Source: Photorhabdus khanii NC19 (GTDB taxonomy: Bacteria; Pseudomonadota; Gammaproteobacteria; Enterobacterales; Enterobacteriaceae). From it: DNA of 47,700 nucleotides. A model generated the notes under the pieces. That model worked only from the letters and a program-made list of their open reading frames with translations. It did not search any database and was not told the origin of the DNA. Within the stretch, counting starts at the first letter, position 1, and every line of letters starts with the position of its first letter. Both the position numbers and the translations under genes were made by a program. The stretch covers positions 212,389 to 260,088 of the forward strand of contig NZ_AYSJ01000004.1 of NCBI RefSeq assembly GCF_000517265.1, written 5' to 3'. Of the stretch, positions 1 through 7,750 are shown in pieces.

Positions 1-394
1 ACGGCAGCCATTCAGGGACTGGCAGGGGGTAATATTGGTCAGGCACTGGCGGGCGGGGCTTCACCGTATCTGGCCGGGGTGATTAAAGACTTGACCACCG
101 ACCCACAAACCGGAAGAGTGGATATTGCCACCAATACGCTAGCCCATGCGATTCTGGGAGCCGTAGTTGCGGAAGCCAGTGGCAACAATGCACTGGCCGG
201 GGCAGCAGGTGCCGCTTCCGGTGAACTGGCGGCTCAGGCACTGGTTAAGCACTTTCATGGAGAAAATGTTAAAGTCAGTGAATTAAGTGAAGAGGAGAAG
301 CAGACTATCAGCACCCTCTCCACTCTGGCTGCCGGGCTGGCAGGCGGGATTGCGGGTGACTCCACCGGCAGTGCCGTTACTGGTGCCCAAGCTG
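1..394 (+). repeat. Pre-toxin repeat copy A
   Basis: First of three near-identical direct repeats encoding the CDI pre-toxin region (the others are at 2098-2560 and 4927-5320). The copies differ by scattered single bases, for example gatattgcc versus gatgttgct/gatgttgcc just after the GRVD codons. Homology this strong permits recombination that swaps toxin tips. Confidence 0.85.
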
Positions 395-408
395 GAAGAA
401 TGCGGTAG
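1..408 (+). pseudogene. CdiA/FhaB pre-toxin segment, cassette 1 (5' end outside window, frameshifted)
   Basis: The frame is open from the first base and encodes the Ala/Gly-rich region that precedes the VENN motif in contact-dependent inhibition proteins (core 'NALAGAAGAASGELAAQAL', then 'LSEEEKQTISTLSTLAAGLAGG'). The same segment recurs at about 2098-2560 and 4927-5320. The frame stops at 408 because one G is missing near 391-396: this copy reads gctggaagaat where cassette 2 reads gctgggaagaat. Adding the base back joins this frame to the one at 423-1493 and restores AGKNAVENNS. Whether this is the end of the main cdiA gene or an orphan cassette cannot be seen, because the 5' part lies outside the window. 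Confidence 0.75.
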
Positions 409-422
409 AAAATAACTCGCTG

Positions 423-1493
423 GTGGGAGATAAAGCCAGAGAGTCGGTGAAAGAAAGTACGGAATACTGGAAGTCGCAAGTCAGGGACAAAATGGGGGAA
501 AACCTTGCATCTCAGCTCACCAACGGCGTCTTAAACGCAGTCAGTGAAGCGGGTGATTTTGTTATGGCCGGAGGGGATACGGTACTTGATGCAGCCATGG
601 CCTTAACGAGCTGCGCAACAGGAGACAGCTACTGTAATCAGGCTATAAGTGATCTAAACAAGAAAGATCAGGCGGCAGGAAAAGCTCTGAGCTCACTGGT
701 AAATGGTGAAACATGGAACGCTATCAAGGATACGGCCACTAAAGCTTCGCAGGGGGATCAGGTAGCGCTGGAGAATCTGGCAGGGGTGCTAACGAGTGTG
801 GTTGTCCCTGCAAAAGGCTTGCCTACCGGAGGGAAAACAGGGGCAATATTTGAACAGAATATAGCAAAAGGAACAACAGGCCAGGCAGAGAAATCACCTG
901 CTGTTAACAAAGGTGACAACTGGAGTGCAGGCGAAGGACAATATAGTCCGAAAAATCAGGGAACGGTCACAGATGTTAAACATCTAAGTAGTAAATTTGA
1001 TGGGAATTCGTTGCCTTATGCTGAGAAAGAACTAAAAACTTCATCATCAAATGCAACTAGTGCATTAGCAACTAAAGCGCAGCAAGATTTAATAAATGAA
1101 ATTCACAATTTTCCTTCTAAAACTAAAGCAACAGACATCTCTACAATGATTGGAGCTTATGACCCATTAACAGGAAAAACAGCAGTAGGCTCAAGCAATA
1201 AAAAGATAACCAGAGATACTTTACATCCGACGACAGTAGAATATGTAGAGAAGCAGTTAGGGGTAAAAATAGGTGAATTTACTAATTTCTGTAAAAATAA
1301 AGCCGGAGCTTGTGCTGAGGTTTCAGCAGCTGATCAGTTAGTGCGGCAAGGAGTAGAACCATCAAGAATTAAGTTTACTCAGGCTCTTAGACCTAGAGAT
1401 GTATGGCGAAAAAAAGATATACCATCTAAGGCAAAAGTTCCTACTTGTGAAAATTGTGGAGTAGTTTGGAAAGACGGGGTAATTGACAAATGA
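423..1493 (+). CDS. CdiA-CT toxin tip, YwqJ-like deaminase domain (cut off from its pre-toxin region by a frameshift)
   Basis: This is the C-terminal toxin part of cassette 1. The reading frame already encodes VENN at 405-416, and the GTG at 423 is only the first formal start, so the protein probably lacks a delivery domain as it stands. The last ~90 residues contain LHP, then C297-A-E, then C342-E-N-C345. This is the zinc-binding C-x-E plus C-x-x-C pattern of cytidine-deaminase-fold toxins, in the YwqJ arrangement. If active, it would deaminate nucleic-acid bases in a target cell. Base composition becomes clearly AT-rich from about 960, where the variable tip begins. The stop overlaps the next gene's ATG by 4 bp, as in a toxin-immunity pair. 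The deaminase call is fairly secure; activity is not shown. Confidence 0.75.
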   Translation: MGDKARESVKESTEYWKSQVRDKMGENLASQLTNGVLNAVSEAGDFVMAGGDTVLDAAMALTSCATGDSYCNQAISDLNKKDQAAGKALSSLVNGETWNAIKDTATKASQGDQVALENLAGVLTSVVVPAKGLPTGGKTGAIFEQNIAKGTTGQAEKSPAVNKGDNWSAGEGQYSPKNQGTVTDVKHLSSKFDGNSLPYAEKELKTSSSNATSALATKAQQDLINEIHNFPSKTKATDISTMIGAYDPLTGKTAVGSSNKKITRDTLHPTTVEYVEKQLGVKIGEFTNFCKNKAGACAEVSAADQLVRQGVEPSRIKFTQALRPRDVWRKKDIPSKAKVPTCENCGVVWKDGVIDK

Positions 1494-2095
1494 ATACATT
1501 AAATACTGATTGGGAACCTGGGTTTGGTTCTGTTTTTACATGGTTTGCTATGGATAAGAAAGGTAAGATAGCGGTAATGATAAACAATGGGTTTGGTGAT
1601 TTACCTAAGGTATTATTATCTATACATGATGCAGACGAGTTATTAGAGCACCTTAATGAGTATATGTGGGAAGAATCTAGTGTGTTCGTAAATTACCCTG
1701 TAGATAAACAAGGTAATACTATTTTAGATATGTATTCTGCATATCAATACAACTGTTTTTCTTCCAGAAATGAAGTAGAAAAATATATACAAGACGATTT
1801 CATTGAGTCAGGTAATTATAGTGATACTAATTTATCTATCAATAAAGGATTTCATATATACCAAGCTATAGAAGGTAGTAATCCAGGCCAAGATTATCCT
1901 GTAGGTTATGATGGAGAAACCAAAATGGGGGACTATTTTAGGTATCTGATGCCAACAGTTTACGCTTCAATAGACGACTTCCCTAGTGAGCTACGAAGAG
2001 GGATTGCTGTATCTGATACTATCGATTTTACGGTTGATCGTGTATTAGATAATGATCTTATCAACATCTATTTCCCGAAAATGTACTCAGAATAA
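1490..2095 (+). CDS. Probable immunity protein of cassette 1
   Basis: A 201-aa acidic protein with no signal peptide or membrane segment, so cytosolic. I do not recognise the family. It is called an immunity protein from context: its ATG overlaps the stop of the deaminase toxin by 4 bp, it is much more AT-rich than the pre-toxin DNA, and a new copy of the pre-toxin repeat begins within a few bases of its stop. It is Trp/Tyr/Asp-rich, as many immunity proteins are. It appears intact although its toxin is frameshifted, as expected if it still protects against sibling cells carrying the intact toxin. Confidence 0.6.
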   Translation: MNTLNTDWEPGFGSVFTWFAMDKKGKIAVMINNGFGDLPKVLLSIHDADELLEHLNEYMWEESSVFVNYPVDKQGNTILDMYSAYQYNCFSSRNEVEKYIQDDFIESGNYSDTNLSINKGFHIYQAIEGSNPGQDYPVGYDGETKMGDYFRYLMPTVYASIDDFPSELRRGIAVSDTIDFTVDRVLDNDLINIYFPKMYSE

Positions 2096-2097
2096 AT

Positions 2098-2560
2098 AAT
2101 GACTCAGGCTTTGGTACCGGCGGTAAATACCAGACTGCCTTACAGGCCGCGACGGCAGCCATTCAGGGACTGGCAGGGGGTAATATTGGTCAGGCACTGG
2201 CGGGCGGGGCTTCACCGTATCTGGCCGGGGTGATTAAAGACTTGACCACCGACCCACAAACCGGAAGAGTGGATGTTGCTACCAATACGCTAGCCCATGC
2301 AATTCTGGGAGCCGTAGTTGCGGAAGCCAGTGGCAACAATGCACTGGCCGGGGCAGCAGGTGCGGCTTCCGGTGAACTGGCGGCTCAGGCACTGGTTAAG
2401 CACTTTCATGGAGAAAATGTTAAAGTCAGTGAATTAAGTGAAGAGGAGAAGCAGACTATCAGCACCCTCTCCACTCTGGCTGCCGGGCTGGCAGGCGGGA
2501 TTGCGGGTGACTCCACCGGCAGTGCCGTTACTGGTGCCCAAGCTGGGAAGAATGCGATTG
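2098..2560 (+). repeat. Pre-toxin repeat copy B
   Basis: Homology to copy C begins at the codons for NDSGFGTGGKYQTAL, immediately after the stop of the cassette 1 immunity gene, and runs through the IENN motif (AGKNAIENNFLS). The sharp junction at the immunity stop is the mark of an orphan cdiA-CT/cdiI cassette appended downstream of another. Confidence 0.85.
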
Positions 2561-3507
2561 AGAATAACTTTTTGAGCGCTGACCAAATCGATGATTTTGC
2601 GGCCAGAGCCAAAGGGTGCGAGGCGCGTGGCGACTGCAATCAGATCGTGAAAGAAATGGAAGATTTGAGTCTGACGCAACGCAATGAGTTGATTGTGACC
2701 TGTGCTTCCGATCCTGCGGCTTGTAAAGAAAAATACGGTGAACTCCCCGCCAACAGTATGTTAGTACGTCAGGCGATTGATAAGGCACTGGGTGAAGATA
2801 TTCCATGGAGCATGAAGAATGATCTGTCTGTTTTGCTGATGCAGCAAATGGATGAATTAGGGATTGTGACCAGTACGGAGTTTGCGCAGAAACTTGAAAA
2901 GCAGTACAGTCTGGATAAGCAGCGTGCGGAAATTTTGGCGGGTGCCGCATTAGGGGCTGTAACCGGTGGAATGAGCAACAGAGGGGGTAAGTCTGGTGCC
3001 GTCACCGAAGGAAAGAATGTTGTTATCGTAGACTCAGGTAAGAAGAGGGCTTGGAATAAGACGCTGAATAAACCTGAGCCGAATACGGTCTATCATGTTG
3101 ATGGAAATAAAACATTCCAGACCGATTCACTTGGTCGCACTAGCCTTGCTGAAGGATCTCTGTCTTTGTCCAAGAATGATCGTAATACTTATCAACAGTG
3201 TAAAGCCGGTAAATGTGGTAATCCAGGAGATGAAGGTGGTCACTTAATCGCCAGTGTATTTAATGGGCCTGGTGAAAAATTAAACCTTGTGCCAATGGAT
3301 GGAAACCTGAATAAAGGTGCTTGGAAACAAATGGAAAATACTTGGGCTAGTGCTTTGAAGGAAGGTAAGCAAGTTAATGTTAAAGTTGAACCTGTTTATA
3401 AAGGTAATAACGTACGTCCCGAAAGTTTTAGCGTAACGTATTCCATTGATGGAGGTAGGCCAATAGTGAAAGATATTAGCAATATACCTGGAGGCGGGAA
3501 GAAATGA
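2230..3507 (+). CDS. Orphan CdiA-CT toxin, DNA/RNA non-specific endonuclease domain
   Basis: The 425-aa frame starts at GTG 2230, but in-frame homology to the pre-toxin region reaches back to about 2098, so this start is formal. Order: pre-toxin region (1 to ~107), an IENN version of VENN, a Cys-containing linker (~115-235), then the toxin tip. The tip carries GGH338LIA, 'NLVPM' and N359, the pattern of the His-Me-finger DNA/RNA non-specific endonucleases (Endonuclea_NS_2 type), which would degrade nucleic acids of a target cell. Unlike cassettes 1 and 3, the frame is unbroken from repeat to stop. It lacks the TPS and haemagglutinin regions needed for export, so it is a silent donor cassette unless recombined onto a full cdiA. 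Its stop overlaps the immunity ATG by 4 bp. Confidence 0.8.
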   Translation: MIKDLTTDPQTGRVDVATNTLAHAILGAVVAEASGNNALAGAAGAASGELAAQALVKHFHGENVKVSELSEEEKQTISTLSTLAAGLAGGIAGDSTGSAVTGAQAGKNAIENNFLSADQIDDFAARAKGCEARGDCNQIVKEMEDLSLTQRNELIVTCASDPAACKEKYGELPANSMLVRQAIDKALGEDIPWSMKNDLSVLLMQQMDELGIVTSTEFAQKLEKQYSLDKQRAEILAGAALGAVTGGMSNRGGKSGAVTEGKNVVIVDSGKKRAWNKTLNKPEPNTVYHVDGNKTFQTDSLGRTSLAEGSLSLSKNDRNTYQQCKAGKCGNPGDEGGHLIASVFNGPGEKLNLVPMDGNLNKGAWKQMENTWASALKEGKQVNVKVEPVYKGNNVRPESFSVTYSIDGGRPIVKDISNIPGGGKK

Positions 3508-3836
3508 AGGAATTAGATACTCTTCATAATAAAATTGGTCAATTGCTTGTTGATGCTGGCCCAGAGGATGCACGGGAAATAATTGTGTGTGCTAGGTTAT
3601 CTCCAGAAGGTGATACTTGCGAATATGAATATGATTATACAGATAACAAAGGGCATCAAGACTGGTTTGTCCCTGATAAAAACGCTAGCTATGATCTTAG
3701 ATTATTATTAGTAGAATTGAGGAAATACTACATAGAAAACCATCTCACTAATGGGCTTCCGGCATGGAATGGTTGTTTAGTTAAAGTGGATCTTGAAAAG
3801 ATGAAGATCAATATAGAATTTAAATACGAAGACTAA
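3504..3836 (+). CDS. Immunity protein of cassette 2, YezG-like
   Basis: A 110-aa acidic cytosolic protein beginning four bases before the end of the endonuclease toxin gene. The N-terminal 'LHNKIGQLLVDAGPEDAREI' followed by a tract rich in Tyr and acidic residues resembles the YezG (DUF600) immunity family, which neutralises nuclease toxins of LXG and CDI type. The family call is from pattern memory and is moderate; the immunity role is well supported by overlap and position. A strong hairpin terminator follows directly, closing the cassette. Confidence 0.65.
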   Translation: MKELDTLHNKIGQLLVDAGPEDAREIIVCARLSPEGDTCEYEYDYTDNKGHQDWFVPDKNASYDLRLLLVELRKYYIENHLTNGLPAWNGCLVKVDLEKMKINIEFKYED

Positions 3837-3846
3837 CCAGAAAGAG

Positions 3847-3872
3847 ATCCCAGCCGAGGTGCTGGGATTTTT
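3847..3872 (+). terminator. Rho-independent terminator of cassette 2
   Basis: Perfect 8-bp stem (atcccagc / gctgggat) with a 6-nt loop, followed by a T-run. It lies 10 bp after the immunity stop. Confidence 0.85.
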
Positions 3873-3882
3873 CCTTTAGTCG

Positions 3883-4086
3883 TCAACTGTTCTCAACAAG
3901 CCGGATAATCAACAGCCCGTGCTCAATGCTGACCTGCACCGGCTGCCCGGTCATAAAGCCCGCCTCTTCCAGCCAGTTGCCCTTAAGATGCAAACTGGGG
4001 TGCTGGCTGTAATAGCGGGTCATGCCAGTGTGGCGGTTGGTGTGACATCGGCTGATATAGCCGATTTTATGTAATATTCCGGTCAT
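3883..4086 (-). CDS. symE: SymE-family toxin
   Basis: A 67-aa protein with the SymE core: 'RYYSQHPSLHLKGNWLEEAG', then F-x-T-G-Q-P-V-x-V and a final 'GLLIIRL', the swapped-hairpin AbrB-like fold of the SOS-induced type I toxin SymE. It is shorter than E. coli SymE (113 aa), lacking its C-terminal tail. AAGGTGAG is a good ribosome site just before the ATG. SymE proteins are linked to RNA degradation and nucleoid binding. No LexA box or SymR antisense promoter could be established. The gene faces away from the IS66 remnant. A second, decayed symE lies at 6777-6935. Confidence 0.75.
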   Translation of the reverse strand: MTGILHKIGYISRCHTNRHTGMTRYYSQHPSLHLKGNWLEEAGFMTGQPVQVSIEHGLLIIRLVENS

Positions 4087-4154
4087 CTCACCTTGTCCTT
4101 CCCCTCCGATCCATGCACGCTACCGTTTCCTTTCTTTATTTGGAGACTGACACC

Positions 4155-4457
4155 ATGAGCCGTAGCCGATATACCCCGGAGCAAAAACAACACCATGTGA
4201 CCCAATGGCGGCACAGTGGCCTGACCCGAAAACAGTATTGTGAACAGCATCAGCTGAGTTTTTCCTCTTTCCGCGACTGGATTGCCGACAGTCACAAAAT
4301 GCGCCAACCTCTCAGCCAGACACGGCCCGCCATCTTGCCGGTTTTACTCCAGCCTGACGACACGCACACCGTCACCCTGCCTACCCCAGACGGTTATGCC
4401 GTCGCCTGTCCATTGACGCTGTTGCCTGACGTGATGCGGGTACTGGCCCGATGCTGA
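4155..4457 (+). mobile_element. IS66-family TnpA-like protein
   Basis: The 100-aa frame from ATG 4155 has TTGGAG as ribosome site; an in-frame GTG/TTG extension to 4113 is less likely. The N-terminus 'SRYTPEQKQHHVTQWRHSGL' followed by RKQYCEQHQLSFSSFRDW is the helix-turn-helix start of IS66 TnpA accessory proteins, and the C-terminus contains the usual stretch ending in MRVLARC. It overlaps tnpB by 7 bp, the normal IS66 arrangement. No tnpC remains and the terminal inverted repeats could not be placed, so the element is dead. Confidence 0.8.
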
Positions 4458-4657
4458 AACCGCAACAGCTCTTTCTGGTGCGAGAGCCCGTCGACATGCG
4501 CCGGGGCATTGATGCCTTGACCCAACACCTTGAGGGACTGAATTTGCGCTGGCAGGAAGAAGCCGCTTTTGTTTTCTGCAACAAGGCCCGCTCCCGTCTC
4601 AAGGTTTTACCCGGCGGGATATTCGGACCGCTCTGCACTGGGGCGATACGCAACTGA
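4451..4657 (+). pseudogene. IS66 tnpB, 3'-truncated
   Basis: The first ~55 residues match IS66 Orf2/TnpB: 'LFLVREPVDMRRGIDALTQH', then FVFCNKARSRLKVL. A full TnpB is about 115 aa and continues with a WDR-G-W-L tract. Here homology ends near 4612 and the frame stops at 4657 in unrelated sequence, where the DNA joins the third CDI cassette. The other half of the element is absent from the window, which points to deletion or recombination across the IS. Confidence 0.8.
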
Positions 4658-5369
4658 AAGTGCATCTGAGAAGGCCATGCCCAAAGCACCACTCATGCGG
4701 CAGTCAGTGATGGCACGATTGCTATCCGAAATAAGCACAAACAACAGTGATATTGCCGGTACTGAAGGGTCTATTATCGCCACCAAAGCTGCTAACGCGA
4801 AAATGGCGAATATCAGTGAGCAGGACAAAGCGGACGCCAGAGCGAAACTGGCGAAAACCAGCACTTTCCCCCCAACTGAGGATGACATTAAAAACCAAAT
4901 TTACAACACGGCTTACAATCAGGCATTGAATGATTCGGGCTTCGGCACCGGGGGTAAATACCAGACCGCTTTACAGGCCGCAACGGCAGCCATTCAGGGA
5001 CTGGCAGGGGGTAATATTGGTCAGGCACTGGCGGGCGGGGCTTCACCGTATCTGGCCGGGGTGATTAAAGACTTGACCACCGACCCACAAACCGGAAGAG
5101 TGGATGTTGCCACCAATACGCTAGCCCATGCGATTCTGGGAGCCGTAGTTGCGGAAGCCAGTGGCAACAATGCACTGGCCGGGGCAGCAGGTGCCGCTTC
5201 CGGTGAACTGGCGGCTCAGGCACTGGTTAAGCACTTTCATGGAGAAAATGTTAAAGTCAGTGAATTAAGTGAAGAGGAGAAGCAGACTATCAGCACCCTC
5301 TCCACTCTGGCTGCCAGGCTAGCCGGTCACCGGAAAAGGGACAACAGGTTCAACAATACTGAATGCTAG
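4569..5369 (+). pseudogene. CdiA pre-toxin segment, cassette 3, fused to IS66 debris
   Basis: The 266-aa frame starts inside tnpB. From about residue 37 it becomes genuine CdiA: 'MRQSVMARLLSEISTNNSD', the TKA-rich tract, the SGFGTGGKYQ motif and the pre-toxin repeat. It therefore retains ~80 more upstream residues than cassette 2. Homology to the other two copies ends at about 5320 (LAARLAG instead of LAAGLAGG), so the VENN motif is lost. The frame then stops at 5367-5369, while the toxin continues in another frame. The 5' end was removed by the IS66 junction near 4612-4680. Confidence 0.75.
4927..5320 (+). repeat. Pre-toxin repeat copy C
   Basis: Third copy of the pre-toxin repeat, colinear with copies A and B from the NDSGFGTGG codons to the LSTLAA codons, where homology breaks off. 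Confidence 0.85.
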
Positions 5370-5758
5370 TGAAGTTCGTTTATCCCAGAACAGTGTTTCA
5401 TATAATAAAGTTGATCGTACAACAGGTGAAAAATATACCTACGATGATAGTAAACAGTATGAAAACGAATGGTTGGAAAGGAGAGCCTATTGATGTTGTT
5501 AAAATGCCTGATGGAAAAATAACAAGCATGGACAATACTCGTATTAGTGCGGCCAGAGAGGCTGGTATTGAGGTAAAAGCTACAGTACGTAGTTTTGATG
5601 AACCTCTAACTCCAGAAATGCAAAAGGCTAGAAATTGGGAACAATATCAAACATGGGGAGAAGCTATCCAAGGTAGGATTAATAATCAGTCTGGTAAATT
5701 TAGCGAATTAAATCCTTATGGCGCTGAACAATCACCTAAAATTAGAGGTAAGAAATAA
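5332..5758 (+). pseudogene. ParB-like CdiA-CT toxin tip, cassette 3 (two frameshifts)
   Basis: Three frames must be joined. After the pre-toxin frame ends, the next frame gives 'GKGTTGSTILNASEVRLSQN' and on to GEKYTYDD. Near 5447-5452 the sequence needs two more bases (tacgatgatagtaaac where DD-I-V-N would need gatgatatagtaaac). The last frame then gives VNSMKTNGWKGEPI and 'VVKMPDGKITSMDNTRISAA' followed by REAGI. This resembles the ParB N-terminal fold, in which a hydrophobic strand, a DG turn and a D-x-x-R helix are followed by AG; ParB-like domains occur as polymorphic toxin tips. The stop overlaps the immunity start by 1 bp. As written, no functional toxin can be made. Confidence 0.65.
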
Positions 5759-6183
5759 TGCCTGAGATATATTTATATGATAGTCCAATATTACCTGTGG
5801 GGTTTAAGTTTCCAAAGAAATACATTCTATTGGCAACACAAAACTCCATCATTAATATAGAACCGTGGACTTTCCTTTATGGTGATATGGCTACATCCTT
5901 AAGCTATTATGGAGCCATGCTGAACAAATATAAAGATAAGACATTAATCCCATTTGCAATAGCCAGTGATCCGTCAGGGTTATATAACGATGGATATGTA
6001 GTTTTAGCCTGCTTTGATGGTGATGATATTAGTGGGGATCCTAAAGTTTATTTTCATGATTACGGTTGTAGATCTCAGGATATAAACTGGGATCAACGGT
6101 ATAACTTAGAAAATTTTTCTGCATGGTTTAACTTAGCAGAAGAAGAATCAGCCCGTTACAAAGCAGAACAAGCTGATGAATAG
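5758..6183 (+). CDS. Probable immunity protein of cassette 3 (SUKH-like)
   Basis: A 141-aa acidic cytosolic protein whose ATG shares one base with the toxin stop. The middle contains 'PFAIASDPSGLYNDGYVVLA' then CFDGDD and KVYFHDYG, ending with a helix around FSAWFNLAEEE. The pattern of an acidic strand, 'G-x-V-Y-F-x-D' and a C-terminal helix resembles SMI1/KNR4 (SUKH) immunity proteins, but the match is loose. It is intact although its toxin is broken, like the immunity gene of cassette 1. Confidence 0.55.
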   Translation: MPEIYLYDSPILPVGFKFPKKYILLATQNSIINIEPWTFLYGDMATSLSYYGAMLNKYKDKTLIPFAIASDPSGLYNDGYVVLACFDGDDISGDPKVYFHDYGCRSQDINWDQRYNLENFSAWFNLAEEESARYKAEQADE

Positions 6184-6189
6184 TAGTGT

Positions 6190-6732
6190 TTAATCACAAA
6201 TAAACTGAAAAGGTACTGTTTTAGCTAGCCAAACTCCATTATCAGCCTGATAAAATTTAAAGCCCTGCTCGTACATCGACAGGGCTTTAATCTTTAATAC
6301 TATTGGATTACCGTGGCGTTGCCCAACAGCTACGGCTGTAGCCTCATTGCTTGATAAATGTACATATTGGCGTGAGCCGGCCATTAATCCCTGCTCACGA
6401 ATAGAATCAATAAAACGAGTTGCTGTCCCATGGTATAAAAGCTCAGGAGGGATCTGTTGCTTATAGTTAATATCAACCTGCTGTAATGAATGCCCTTGAA
6501 CAGCTCGAATGCGTAAACCATCTTCAGAAATCGCAAATCGCTTTTTATCACTTCTTTCAACAACAGATTTTATAAGTGACAGACCTAGTTGTTTTCCTTC
6601 TTTCTCTGCACAAACAATCAAAGTGTTAATATCTGCCCATCCTTCATTATCCAGAGTCAGACCAATAACTTCAGGTTGGTGGCGTAAAACATAGCTTAGA
6701 AATTTACTGACTTCTACGTATTGTTTACTCAT
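6190..6732 (-). CDS. kptA: RNA 2'-phosphotransferase, Tpt1/KptA family
   Basis: This 180-aa protein has the full KptA layout: N-terminal winged-helix part with 'LSYVLRHQPE', GLTLDNEGWADINTL, VQGHS, then the ADP-ribosyltransferase half with LLYHGTA and YVHLSS, ending in VWLAKTVPFQFI. The yeast homologue removes the 2'-phosphate left by tRNA splicing using NAD+. Bacterial substrates are not settled; ADP-ribosylated RNA chemistry is a proposed role. The ATG at 6732 follows a short AT-rich leader. It is transcribed towards the toxin cassettes and does not belong to their transcript. No residue loss is evident. Confidence 0.92.
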   Translation of the reverse strand: MSKQYVEVSKFLSYVLRHQPEVIGLTLDNEGWADINTLIVCAEKEGKQLGLSLIKSVVERSDKKRFAISEDGLRIRAVQGHSLQQVDINYKQQIPPELLYHGTATRFIDSIREQGLMAGSRQYVHLSSNEATAVAVGQRHGNPIVLKIKALSMYEQGFKFYQADNGVWLAKTVPFQFICD

Positions 6733-6935: not shown

Positions 6936-6962
6936 ATAGCCGTTACCGGCTACCTGTTTATT

Positions 6963-7307
6963 CCTTTTAGCGCCTGCCTTTTATTAAGTTTAATCATCAT
7001 CGGATATCGTTTTTTACGTTTAACTAACGTTAATCATACCCACTTTTTATCTTTACTGATGTTGTTTTTTCGGATAATTAGCCGCTTTTTCAGGGCTTAA
7101 ATCCTGCCAGATTAACCGTTTTATCCCTTTTTTATTGCGTTATTTTATGGTTTTCTTCGTAAAATAACCGGCGAGAAAGCACTTTAATACTCATCTATTC
7201 AGGTAATATTCTTTTACATGCGGATTTCTTTTCAACTCGCTATTAATGGTTTATGATCTTCGATTAAATAAAATTAATTCTCCTTTTGAAAAATTGTATT
7301 TATCTGA
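6963..7307. repeat. AT-rich direct repeat, copy 1
   Basis: Begins ccttttagcgcctgcctttt and runs through 'ccagattaaccgttttatcc', 'cttcgtaaaataac' and 'ctattaatggttt'. Copy 2 lies 428 bp downstream in the same orientation, with many substitutions and small indels. No credible ORF, tRNA or inverted termini were found in it. Confidence 0.8.
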
Positions 7308-7390
7308 TGGGCAGGCTTTAAGCTATTATTAAAAGTCATTTTTTAACTTATGGTTTTAATCGGTATAAAGCTTTAACCGTTGCTTTTACC

Positions 7391-7750
7391 CCTTTTAGCG
7401 CCTGCTTTTTGTTAAGTTTAACCATCATCGGATATCGTGTTTTACATTTAACGAACGCTAATTATACCTGTTTTTATCTTTACTGACTCTGTTTTTCGAT
7501 TTTTCTATCTTTTCGGATAATCACCCCCTTTTTCAAAGCTTAAACCCTACCAGATTAACCGTTTTATCCCTTTTTATTGCATTATTTTTATGATTTTCTT
7601 CGTAAAATAACTGGCGATAAAACGCTTAAACACCCATCTGTTAGGATAATATTTTTTTACGTGTGGATTTTATTCAACTCTCTATTAATGGTTAATGATT
7701 TCCAATTAAATACAATTAACTCTCATTATGAAAAGTTGCATTTATTGAGT
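7391..7750. repeat. AT-rich direct repeat, copy 2
   Basis: Diverged direct copy of 6963-7307, colinear over its whole length. The rest of the 6936-8041 intergenic stretch is AT-rich with no gene I can support; its last 150 bp is the cbs promoter region. Confidence 0.8.

What the first reader, a model, noticed from the sequence alone, without database searches (positions are those of the whole stretch)
1..6183. Three tandem CDI toxin cassettes sharing one pre-toxin repeat
The same ~400-bp pre-toxin segment occurs three times, each followed by a different toxin class and a different immunity gene. Homology restarts within a few bases of each immunity stop. This is the layout expected of orphan cdiA-CT/cdiI modules that recombine onto a full cdiA. 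All three immunity frames look intact while two of three toxins are broken, which fits selection for protection rather than attack.
Basis: partly seen in the sequence, partly recalled or inferred. Interest (0 to 1): 0.75.

Follow-up and report, generated by a model that had tools for sequence, protein, structure and literature searches.

The report
Toxin cassette array with RNA-repair gene
A Photorhabdus genome keeps a string of spare contact-killing toxin and antidote cassettes, which is ordinary, but the last cassette belongs to a family that often carries an extra RNA-repair enzyme, hinting at a second kind of antidote and at a use for an enzyme whose bacterial role is unexplained.

Summary
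The three-cassette array is real. A CdiA pre-toxin segment, 98.8-99.4% identical between copies, precedes three unrelated toxin/immunity pairs. Corrections: homology restarts at once only after immunity 1; about 830 nt with symE and IS66 remnants precede copy 3. Toxin 1 is frameshifted from its pre-toxin but its own frame is open; toxin 3 lost its start. Two more pairs and a cdiBA with broken cdiA lie upstream; an intact cdiBA is elsewhere. This is an orphan cdiA-CT/cdiI array as published in 2011.

Immunity 3 abuts, tail to tail, a complete kptA (RNA 2'-phosphotransferase). kptA, whole or partial, follows 13 of 15 named immunity-3 relatives and 6 of 7 opened loci of a second toxin family with unrelated immunity; in one genome toxin, immunity and kptA are co-directional and overlap. 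An intact toxin 3 relative is modelled with the ParB/sulfiredoxin fold. Best reading: KptA is a second, erasing immunity that removes 2'-phosphates the toxin puts on RNA. Linkage strong; chemistry inferred.

The parts
1..404 (+). CdiA pre-toxin segment, copy 1 (PT-VENN; homology continues upstream of the window)
423..1493 (+). Toxin 1 frame, parted from the pre-toxin by a one-base frameshift near the VENN codons; C-terminal CAE and CxxC motifs suggest a deaminase (motif read by eye; no family hit above cut-off)
1490..2095 (+). Immunity 1 (201 aa, no Pfam or NCBIfam family); relatives in G007, G081 and Pragia (G071)
2098..2556 (+). CdiA pre-toxin segment, copy 2, starts 2 nt after the immunity 1 stop
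2557..3507 (+). Toxin 2, DNA/RNA non-specific endonuclease (Endonuclea_NS_2, 8e-41), frame continuous with copy 2
3504..3836 (+). Immunity 2, YezG-like (5e-4; 20.6 bits against a cut-off of 21.7)
3883..4086 (-). SymE-like gene, a recurrent spacer between modules
4113..4657 (+). IS66-type remnants (HTH_Tnp_1 and TnpB_IS66)
4666..5320 (+). CdiA pre-toxin segment, copy 3, cut before VENN
5363..5758 (+). Toxin 3 remnant: C-terminal piece of a toxin whose intact relatives are modelled with the ParB fold; N-terminal part missing, out of frame with copy 3
5758..6183 (+). Immunity 3 (141 aa), weakly SUKH-like
6190..6732 (-). kptA, complete RNA 2'-phosphotransferase (PTS_2-RNA 1e-47; NCBIfam equivalog 6e-74), tail to tail with immunity 3

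Best explanation
The region is the 3' part of an orphan cdiA-CT/cdiI array behind a cdiBA locus whose cdiA is broken: a store of immunity genes and toxin tips that recombine at the pre-toxin and VENN codons. Its last module is a worn member of a three-gene module: a ParB/sulfiredoxin-fold toxin, a specific immunity protein, and KptA. Proposed mechanism: the toxin transfers a phosphate onto RNA, most likely an internal 2'-OH of tRNA or another structured RNA, and stops growth; the immunity protein blocks the toxin by binding; KptA with NAD+ removes the 2'-phosphate from RNA already marked. KptA would thus be a second immunity that acts on the damage and could help against related toxins that the specific immunity does not fit. 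In this genome the toxin is truncated and the two protective genes remain. Shown by computation: array, linkage, modelled fold of a relative, conservation of KptA residues. Inferred: phosphate transfer to RNA, erasure, protection.
Against: No activity is measured. Foldseek gave no match at E 0.001 or better and all Z are under 8, which the tool says can be a common arrangement; a fold shows no function, and ParB-fold toxins were proposed as nucleases. More distant toxin relatives lack kptA nearby: gonococcal MafB-type, Streptococcus Rhs, Burkholderia contaminans (toxin 3 family) and Mesorhizobium (P2); two Photorhabdus relatives of immunity 3, at 41-42% identity, also lack it. In the KptA-first sample 15 of 23 opened genes are not beside such toxins, so KptA has other roles too. 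Two KptA loci (G014, G054) sit beside CDI genes without a detected ParB-fold toxin. Toxin 3 and P2 are united only weakly (hhalign E 0.0076, probability 5%). kptA itself looks damaged in some linked loci: no usual start in G045 and the Neisseriaceae MAG, N-terminal part not matching in B. multivorans, a fragment in P. segetis, partial in L049 near a contig end.
Confidence: 0.42

Rival explanations
1. Plain orphan cdiA-CT/cdiI array; kptA is a bystander or a recombination anchor at the end of the array.
For: The layout matches the published class. kptA also sits beside CDI genes without a detected ParB-fold toxin in G014 and G054, and away from toxins in E. coli and others.
Against: The same neighbour recurs with two toxin families and unrelated immunities, beside CdiA-type and Rhs-type carriers, and once as a co-directional overlapping operon. 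In the KptA tree the linkage labels are clustered (10 changes; shuffled mean 16.6, none of 200 as low) but far from a single origin: well-supported branches force at least 3 changes for toxin 3 and 4 for P2, so pairings formed or were lost several times.
Confidence: 0.22
2. The ParB-fold toxin is an RNase; KptA takes part in RNA repair after cleavage and ligation.
For: A nuclease role for ParB-fold toxins has been proposed; KptA clears 2'-phosphates in RNA repair (passages).
Against: Ligation that leaves an internal 2'-phosphate needs a yeast-like RNA ligase; E. coli has none (passage). None stood out beside the modules, but ligases were not searched for.
Confidence: 0.2
3. KptA is an independent defence gene, for instance against phage or toxin damage to tRNA, that collects in the same islands as immunity genes.
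For: KptA occurs in many contexts, e.g. beside an ADP-ribosylglycohydrolase and a NUDIX gene in Acidovorax and near TerD genes in Pseudomonas FeN3W.
Against: Independent collection would hardly place its end overlapping or within 11 nt of the immunity gene in 23 loci, or make it the third gene of an operon.
Confidence: 0.1

Closest known systems
Orphan cdiA-CT/cdiI modules (Poole 2011, PMC3150448; section 6 and passages seen)
   Same: Displaced CdiA tips with VENN, each followed by an immunity gene, unrelated toxins after VENN, IS remnants, exchange at VENN
   Different: Three near-identical pre-toxin copies, SymE-like spacers, and a terminal module with kptA
Tox-ParBL1 toxins, with SUKH among their listed immunities (Zhang 2012, PMC3482391; section 25 and passages seen)
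   Same: ParB fold, N-terminal Ser and NTR-type motif, polymorphic carriers
   Different: kptA as third gene; the word kpta has no occurrence in the part of that paper held, 300,000 of 357,715 characters
ArkI/KptA reversible tRNA 2'-phosphorylation in archaea (PMC9095486; passages seen)
   Same: KptA as eraser of an internal RNA 2'-phosphate made by a kinase
   Different: Here the proposed writer is a delivered toxin of another fold
PARG as protective enzyme against the RNA ADP-ribosylating toxin RhsP2 (PMC11833690; passages seen)
   Same: Protection by removing the RNA mark rather than by binding the toxin
   Different: The PARGs tested came from other bacteria than the toxin; another mark and another enzyme

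Membership tests
Orphan cdiA-CT/cdiI module | CdiA fragment with PT-VENN upstream of a variable tip | tested here: met
   PT-VENN in all three copies, first half only in copy 3
Orphan cdiA-CT/cdiI module | Lies behind a cdiBA locus | tested here: met
   cdiB (ShlB) and cdiA (ESPR, TPS) upstream, cdiA broken
Orphan cdiA-CT/cdiI module | Tip and immunity found on other carriers or in other order elsewhere | tested here: met
   Module 2 at 99.2% in G007 in another context; toxin 3 relatives at the end of long frames in L051, L055 and L058
Orphan cdiA-CT/cdiI module | Toxin and immunity work as a pair | not testable with these tools
   Needs expression
Tox-ParBL1 | ParB fold | tested here: met
Tox-ParBL1 | N-terminal Ser and NTR-type motif | tested here: met
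   RFSQ in 8 of 9 and DNTR in 9 of 9 aligned relatives (L060 lacks the start); definition
Tox-ParBL1 | Sequence kinship with the type member NGK_2271 | tested here: inconclusive
   A gonococcal MafB-type relative at 50%; not identified as NGK_2271
SUKH immunity (imm3) | SMI1/KNR4 profile or fold | tested here: inconclusive
   SMI1_KNR4 0.0072 for one relative, below cut-off; SUKH_5 0.0058 in G293, below cut-off; no usable PDB fold match
KptA/Tpt1 RNA 2'-phosphotransferase | Family profile and Arg-His-Arg-Arg tetrad with HGT motif | tested here: met
   Pfam 1e-47, NCBIfam equivalog above cut-off; motifs present in the window copy (tetrad)
KptA/Tpt1 RNA 2'-phosphotransferase | Removes RNA 2'-phosphate with NAD+ | not testable with these tools
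   Needs an assay
RNA 2'-OH kinase (proposed for toxin 3) | Transfers phosphate from NTP to RNA | not testable with these tools
   Inference from fold and from KptA linkage
Deaminase (toxin 1) | Known deaminase profile | tested here: inconclusive
   No Pfam or NCBIfam deaminase hit; motif read by eye only

The most novel reading that the evidence does not exclude
ParB-fold polymorphic toxins are RNA 2'-OH kinases, and KptA is their dedicated erasing immunity: a natural source of the RNA 2'-phosphate that bacterial KptA acts on, and a three-gene toxin, binder and eraser module in proteobacteria.
Probability: 0.32. Interest if true: 0.9.

Novelty: new variant of a known kind. Interest (0 to 1): 0.7.

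Why it matters
The widespread presence of Tpt1/KptA in bacteria has been called a longstanding conundrum, since many bacteria that have it have no known pathway making its substrate (passages of PMC6333775). A recurring neighbour that is a toxin of a phosphotransferase fold gives a direct candidate for the source. If true it adds RNA phosphorylation to the chemistry of contact-dependent toxins and a damage-reversing enzyme to the layout of immunity loci. The array itself is ordinary.

Tried and rejected
Pfam and NCBIfam did not name toxin 1, immunity 1, toxin 3 or the P2 toxin; PDB sequence searches were run for the toxin 3 relatives (none), P2 (no credible match) and KptA. The immunity 3 fold search in PDB gave nothing usable. 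A viral-contig scan with immunity 3 found no relative. The test of protection versus attack from dN/dS inside the window was inconclusive. The promoter scan found 12 sites against 6.6 (sd 2.7) expected, each 9 of 12 matches. I considered KptA as a general CDI companion and kept it only as a rival, because of the genus control (57 listed pre-toxin matches, one full kptA). Literature: ten searches. One search (KptA with polymorphic toxin) listed 4 papers and one search listed 3; in the titles, abstract starts and passages I saw (PMC9503650 and PMC11833690 opened, passages only) none links kptA to a ParB-fold or CDI module. One search listed 15 of 3,172 papers, none with the word KptA, and so says little. 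Subscription papers and preprints are not held, so the link may be in print unseen.

Rows dropped: the KptA tree used 37 of 39 rows (L049 and L060 under 120 aa). Of 70 plasmid records with kptA 9 were opened, chosen by me near the top. Of 5 P2 plasmid records 4 were looked at, of 5 toxin 3 records 4, one of which (Rahnella) has kptA. Three kptA fragments were not followed; the G005 fragment was (no toxin or pre-toxin hit). The KptA-first count of 8 of 23 includes this genome, the starting point; without it 7 of 22.

Full report
Setting. The window is contig C4:212389-260088 of a 5.23-Mb genome. Congener G002 has a contig C2 of 1,149,849 bases, the length of a Photorhabdus asymbiotica contig returned by name at the same place, so the genus is taken to be Photorhabdus.

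Observation. Three copies of a CdiA pre-toxin segment are present, 98.8-99.4% identical over 338-340 bp and PT-VENN by Pfam. Copy 1 continues upstream of the window start; copies 1 and 3 share 573 bp at 98.4%, copies 1 and 2 472 bp at 96.4%. G+C is 58% in the pre-toxin and 34-45% in the toxin and immunity frames. The two other near-full pre-toxins of the genome are 81-82% identical, so the three copies are recent duplicates or are kept alike.

Wider anatomy. Upstream on C4: cdiB (ShlB and POTRA domains), then a cdiA with ESPR and TPS domains whose body lies in two frames and whose VENN tip lies in a third without the pre-toxin region, with a small gene in the immunity position, then an orphan pair with a short VENN leader, then copy 1. 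Elsewhere: a complete cdiBA on C2 with PT-VENN and an Ntox33 tip, followed by a DUF4279 gene in the immunity position, and a cdiBA on C1 that runs off the contig inside the pre-toxin. The pre-toxin DNA was found in 11 of 12 genomes of the genus set, this genome included.

Exchange. Module 2 (2560-3889) matches G007 at 99.2% over 1330 bp without gaps (11 differences), while pre-toxins match at about 83% and a 312-bp stretch at the start of the cystathionine beta-synthase gene at 90%. In G007 the module stands before a toxin 1/immunity 1 relative and behind another leader. The left edge falls at the ENN codons. This is the VENN-bounded exchange already described.

Module 3 and kptA. Immunity 3 ends at 6183; the stop codon of a complete kptA on the other strand begins 6 nt further on. 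kptA is full length only here among 12 genus genomes; one other has a fragment. A named-genome scan with immunity 3 returned 15 loci; kptA follows immunity 3 directly in 13, in two of them as a partial match. The intact toxin in several of these is a domain of about 130 residues with RFSQ, PVDVV, DNTR and WGEA-type motifs. A second toxin family (P2), seen first beside kptA in G051, was then searched by itself: 3 of 392 family genomes, all three with kptA, two of them from one genus; among plasmid records Burkholderia ambifaria, Duffyella and B. multivorans with kptA, Mesorhizobium without. Its immunity did not match immunity 3 in the BLAST comparisons. In a KptA-first sample of 23 full-length genes opened (9, 5, 9 plasmid hits) 8 are beside one of these modules or its immunity, this genome included. 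In G293, found from KptA alone at 41% identity, an Rhs-type toxin, an immunity 3 relative and kptA run in one direction, the kptA start overlapping the immunity stop. That arrangement argues against a bystander.

KptA. The residues named as catalytic in Tpt1 (Arg-His-Arg-Arg, with an HGT motif; passages of PMC6333775) were read in 39 KptA rows: LRH in 36, IRA in 37, HGT in 35, the last Arg with VH in 37. Among the 24 linked rows the exceptions are L049, L060 and, for LRH only, B. multivorans. A usual start codon before LRH is lacking in G045 and the Neisseriaceae MAG; 19 of the 24 look complete. In the tree of 37 rows the toxin 3-linked, P2-linked and unlinked KptAs are clustered more than chance but do not form single groups; well-supported branches force at least 3 changes for toxin 3 and 4 for P2, so the pairing formed or was lost several times.

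Selection. Pairwise dN/dS for immunity 3 and kptA between lineages with broken or absent toxin (Pragia, G045, Orbaceae, Neisseriaceae MAG) is 0.10-0.23 and 0.06-0.14, with dS 0.7-2.4. How much of this path lies after toxin loss is unknown, and the lost starts in two of the four suggest that kptA is not kept for ever. In toxin-intact pairs toxin, immunity and kptA give 0.13-0.28 in the three pairs where dS is not saturated.

Mechanism. Steps shown: array, exchange, linkage, modelled fold of a relative, conserved KptA residues. Steps inferred: phosphate transfer to RNA, erasure by KptA, protection. Support from the literature is by analogy: ArkI writes and KptA erases a tRNA 2'-phosphate, and E. 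coli KptA can do so too (passages); PARG enzymes protect against an RNA-modifying toxin by removing its mark (passages); the 2019 Tpt1 paper names phosphorylation of an internal 2'-OH by a kinase as one possible source of the bacterial substrate (passage).

Verdict. The kptA linkage is, as far as my searches reach, not described, and it makes the question of the bacterial KptA substrate testable.

Noticed in passing
window 3838-4110; L011 6796-6962; L036 780-940, 12229-12368, 17652-17785; L038 8546-8691; L040 three places: A SymE-like element (Pfam 6e-20 in the window copy) on the opposite strand recurs between CDI modules in four of the Photorhabdus genomes looked at. It may be a recombination site, or a promoter on it could drive downstream modules; untested.
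   Followed up: partly
window 6957-7307 and 7385-7748: A roughly 350-bp duplication, 82% identical, upstream of the cystathionine beta-synthase gene.
   Followed up: no
L036 (G007 C3): The congener array holds further modules: long CdiA fragments with tips, a Deam_C deaminase tip and a possible second deaminase.
   Followed up: partly
L011 7273-7389, at and just before the window start: Seven ambiguous bases inside copy 1 of the repeat, perhaps an assembly effect of the near-identical copies.
   Followed up: no
window about -412 and 4666-4680: Copies 1 and 3 both carry an ATG in a shifted cdiA frame that is in frame with the pre-toxin; the copies differ by an in-frame 96-nt length difference just after it.
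   Followed up: partly
L082 (Acidovorax plasmid): kptA beside an ADP-ribosylglycohydrolase and a NUDIX gene, a possible separate RNA or ADP-ribose repair cluster.
   Followed up: no
L078 and L101 (Duffyella plasmid): Two kptA genes on one replicon, each tail to tail with a P2-type immunity, one of them without its toxin.
   Followed up: yes
L097 (G005 C4 near 33785): A roughly 33-residue kptA remnant, no pre-toxin or ParB-type hit nearby.
   Followed up: partly
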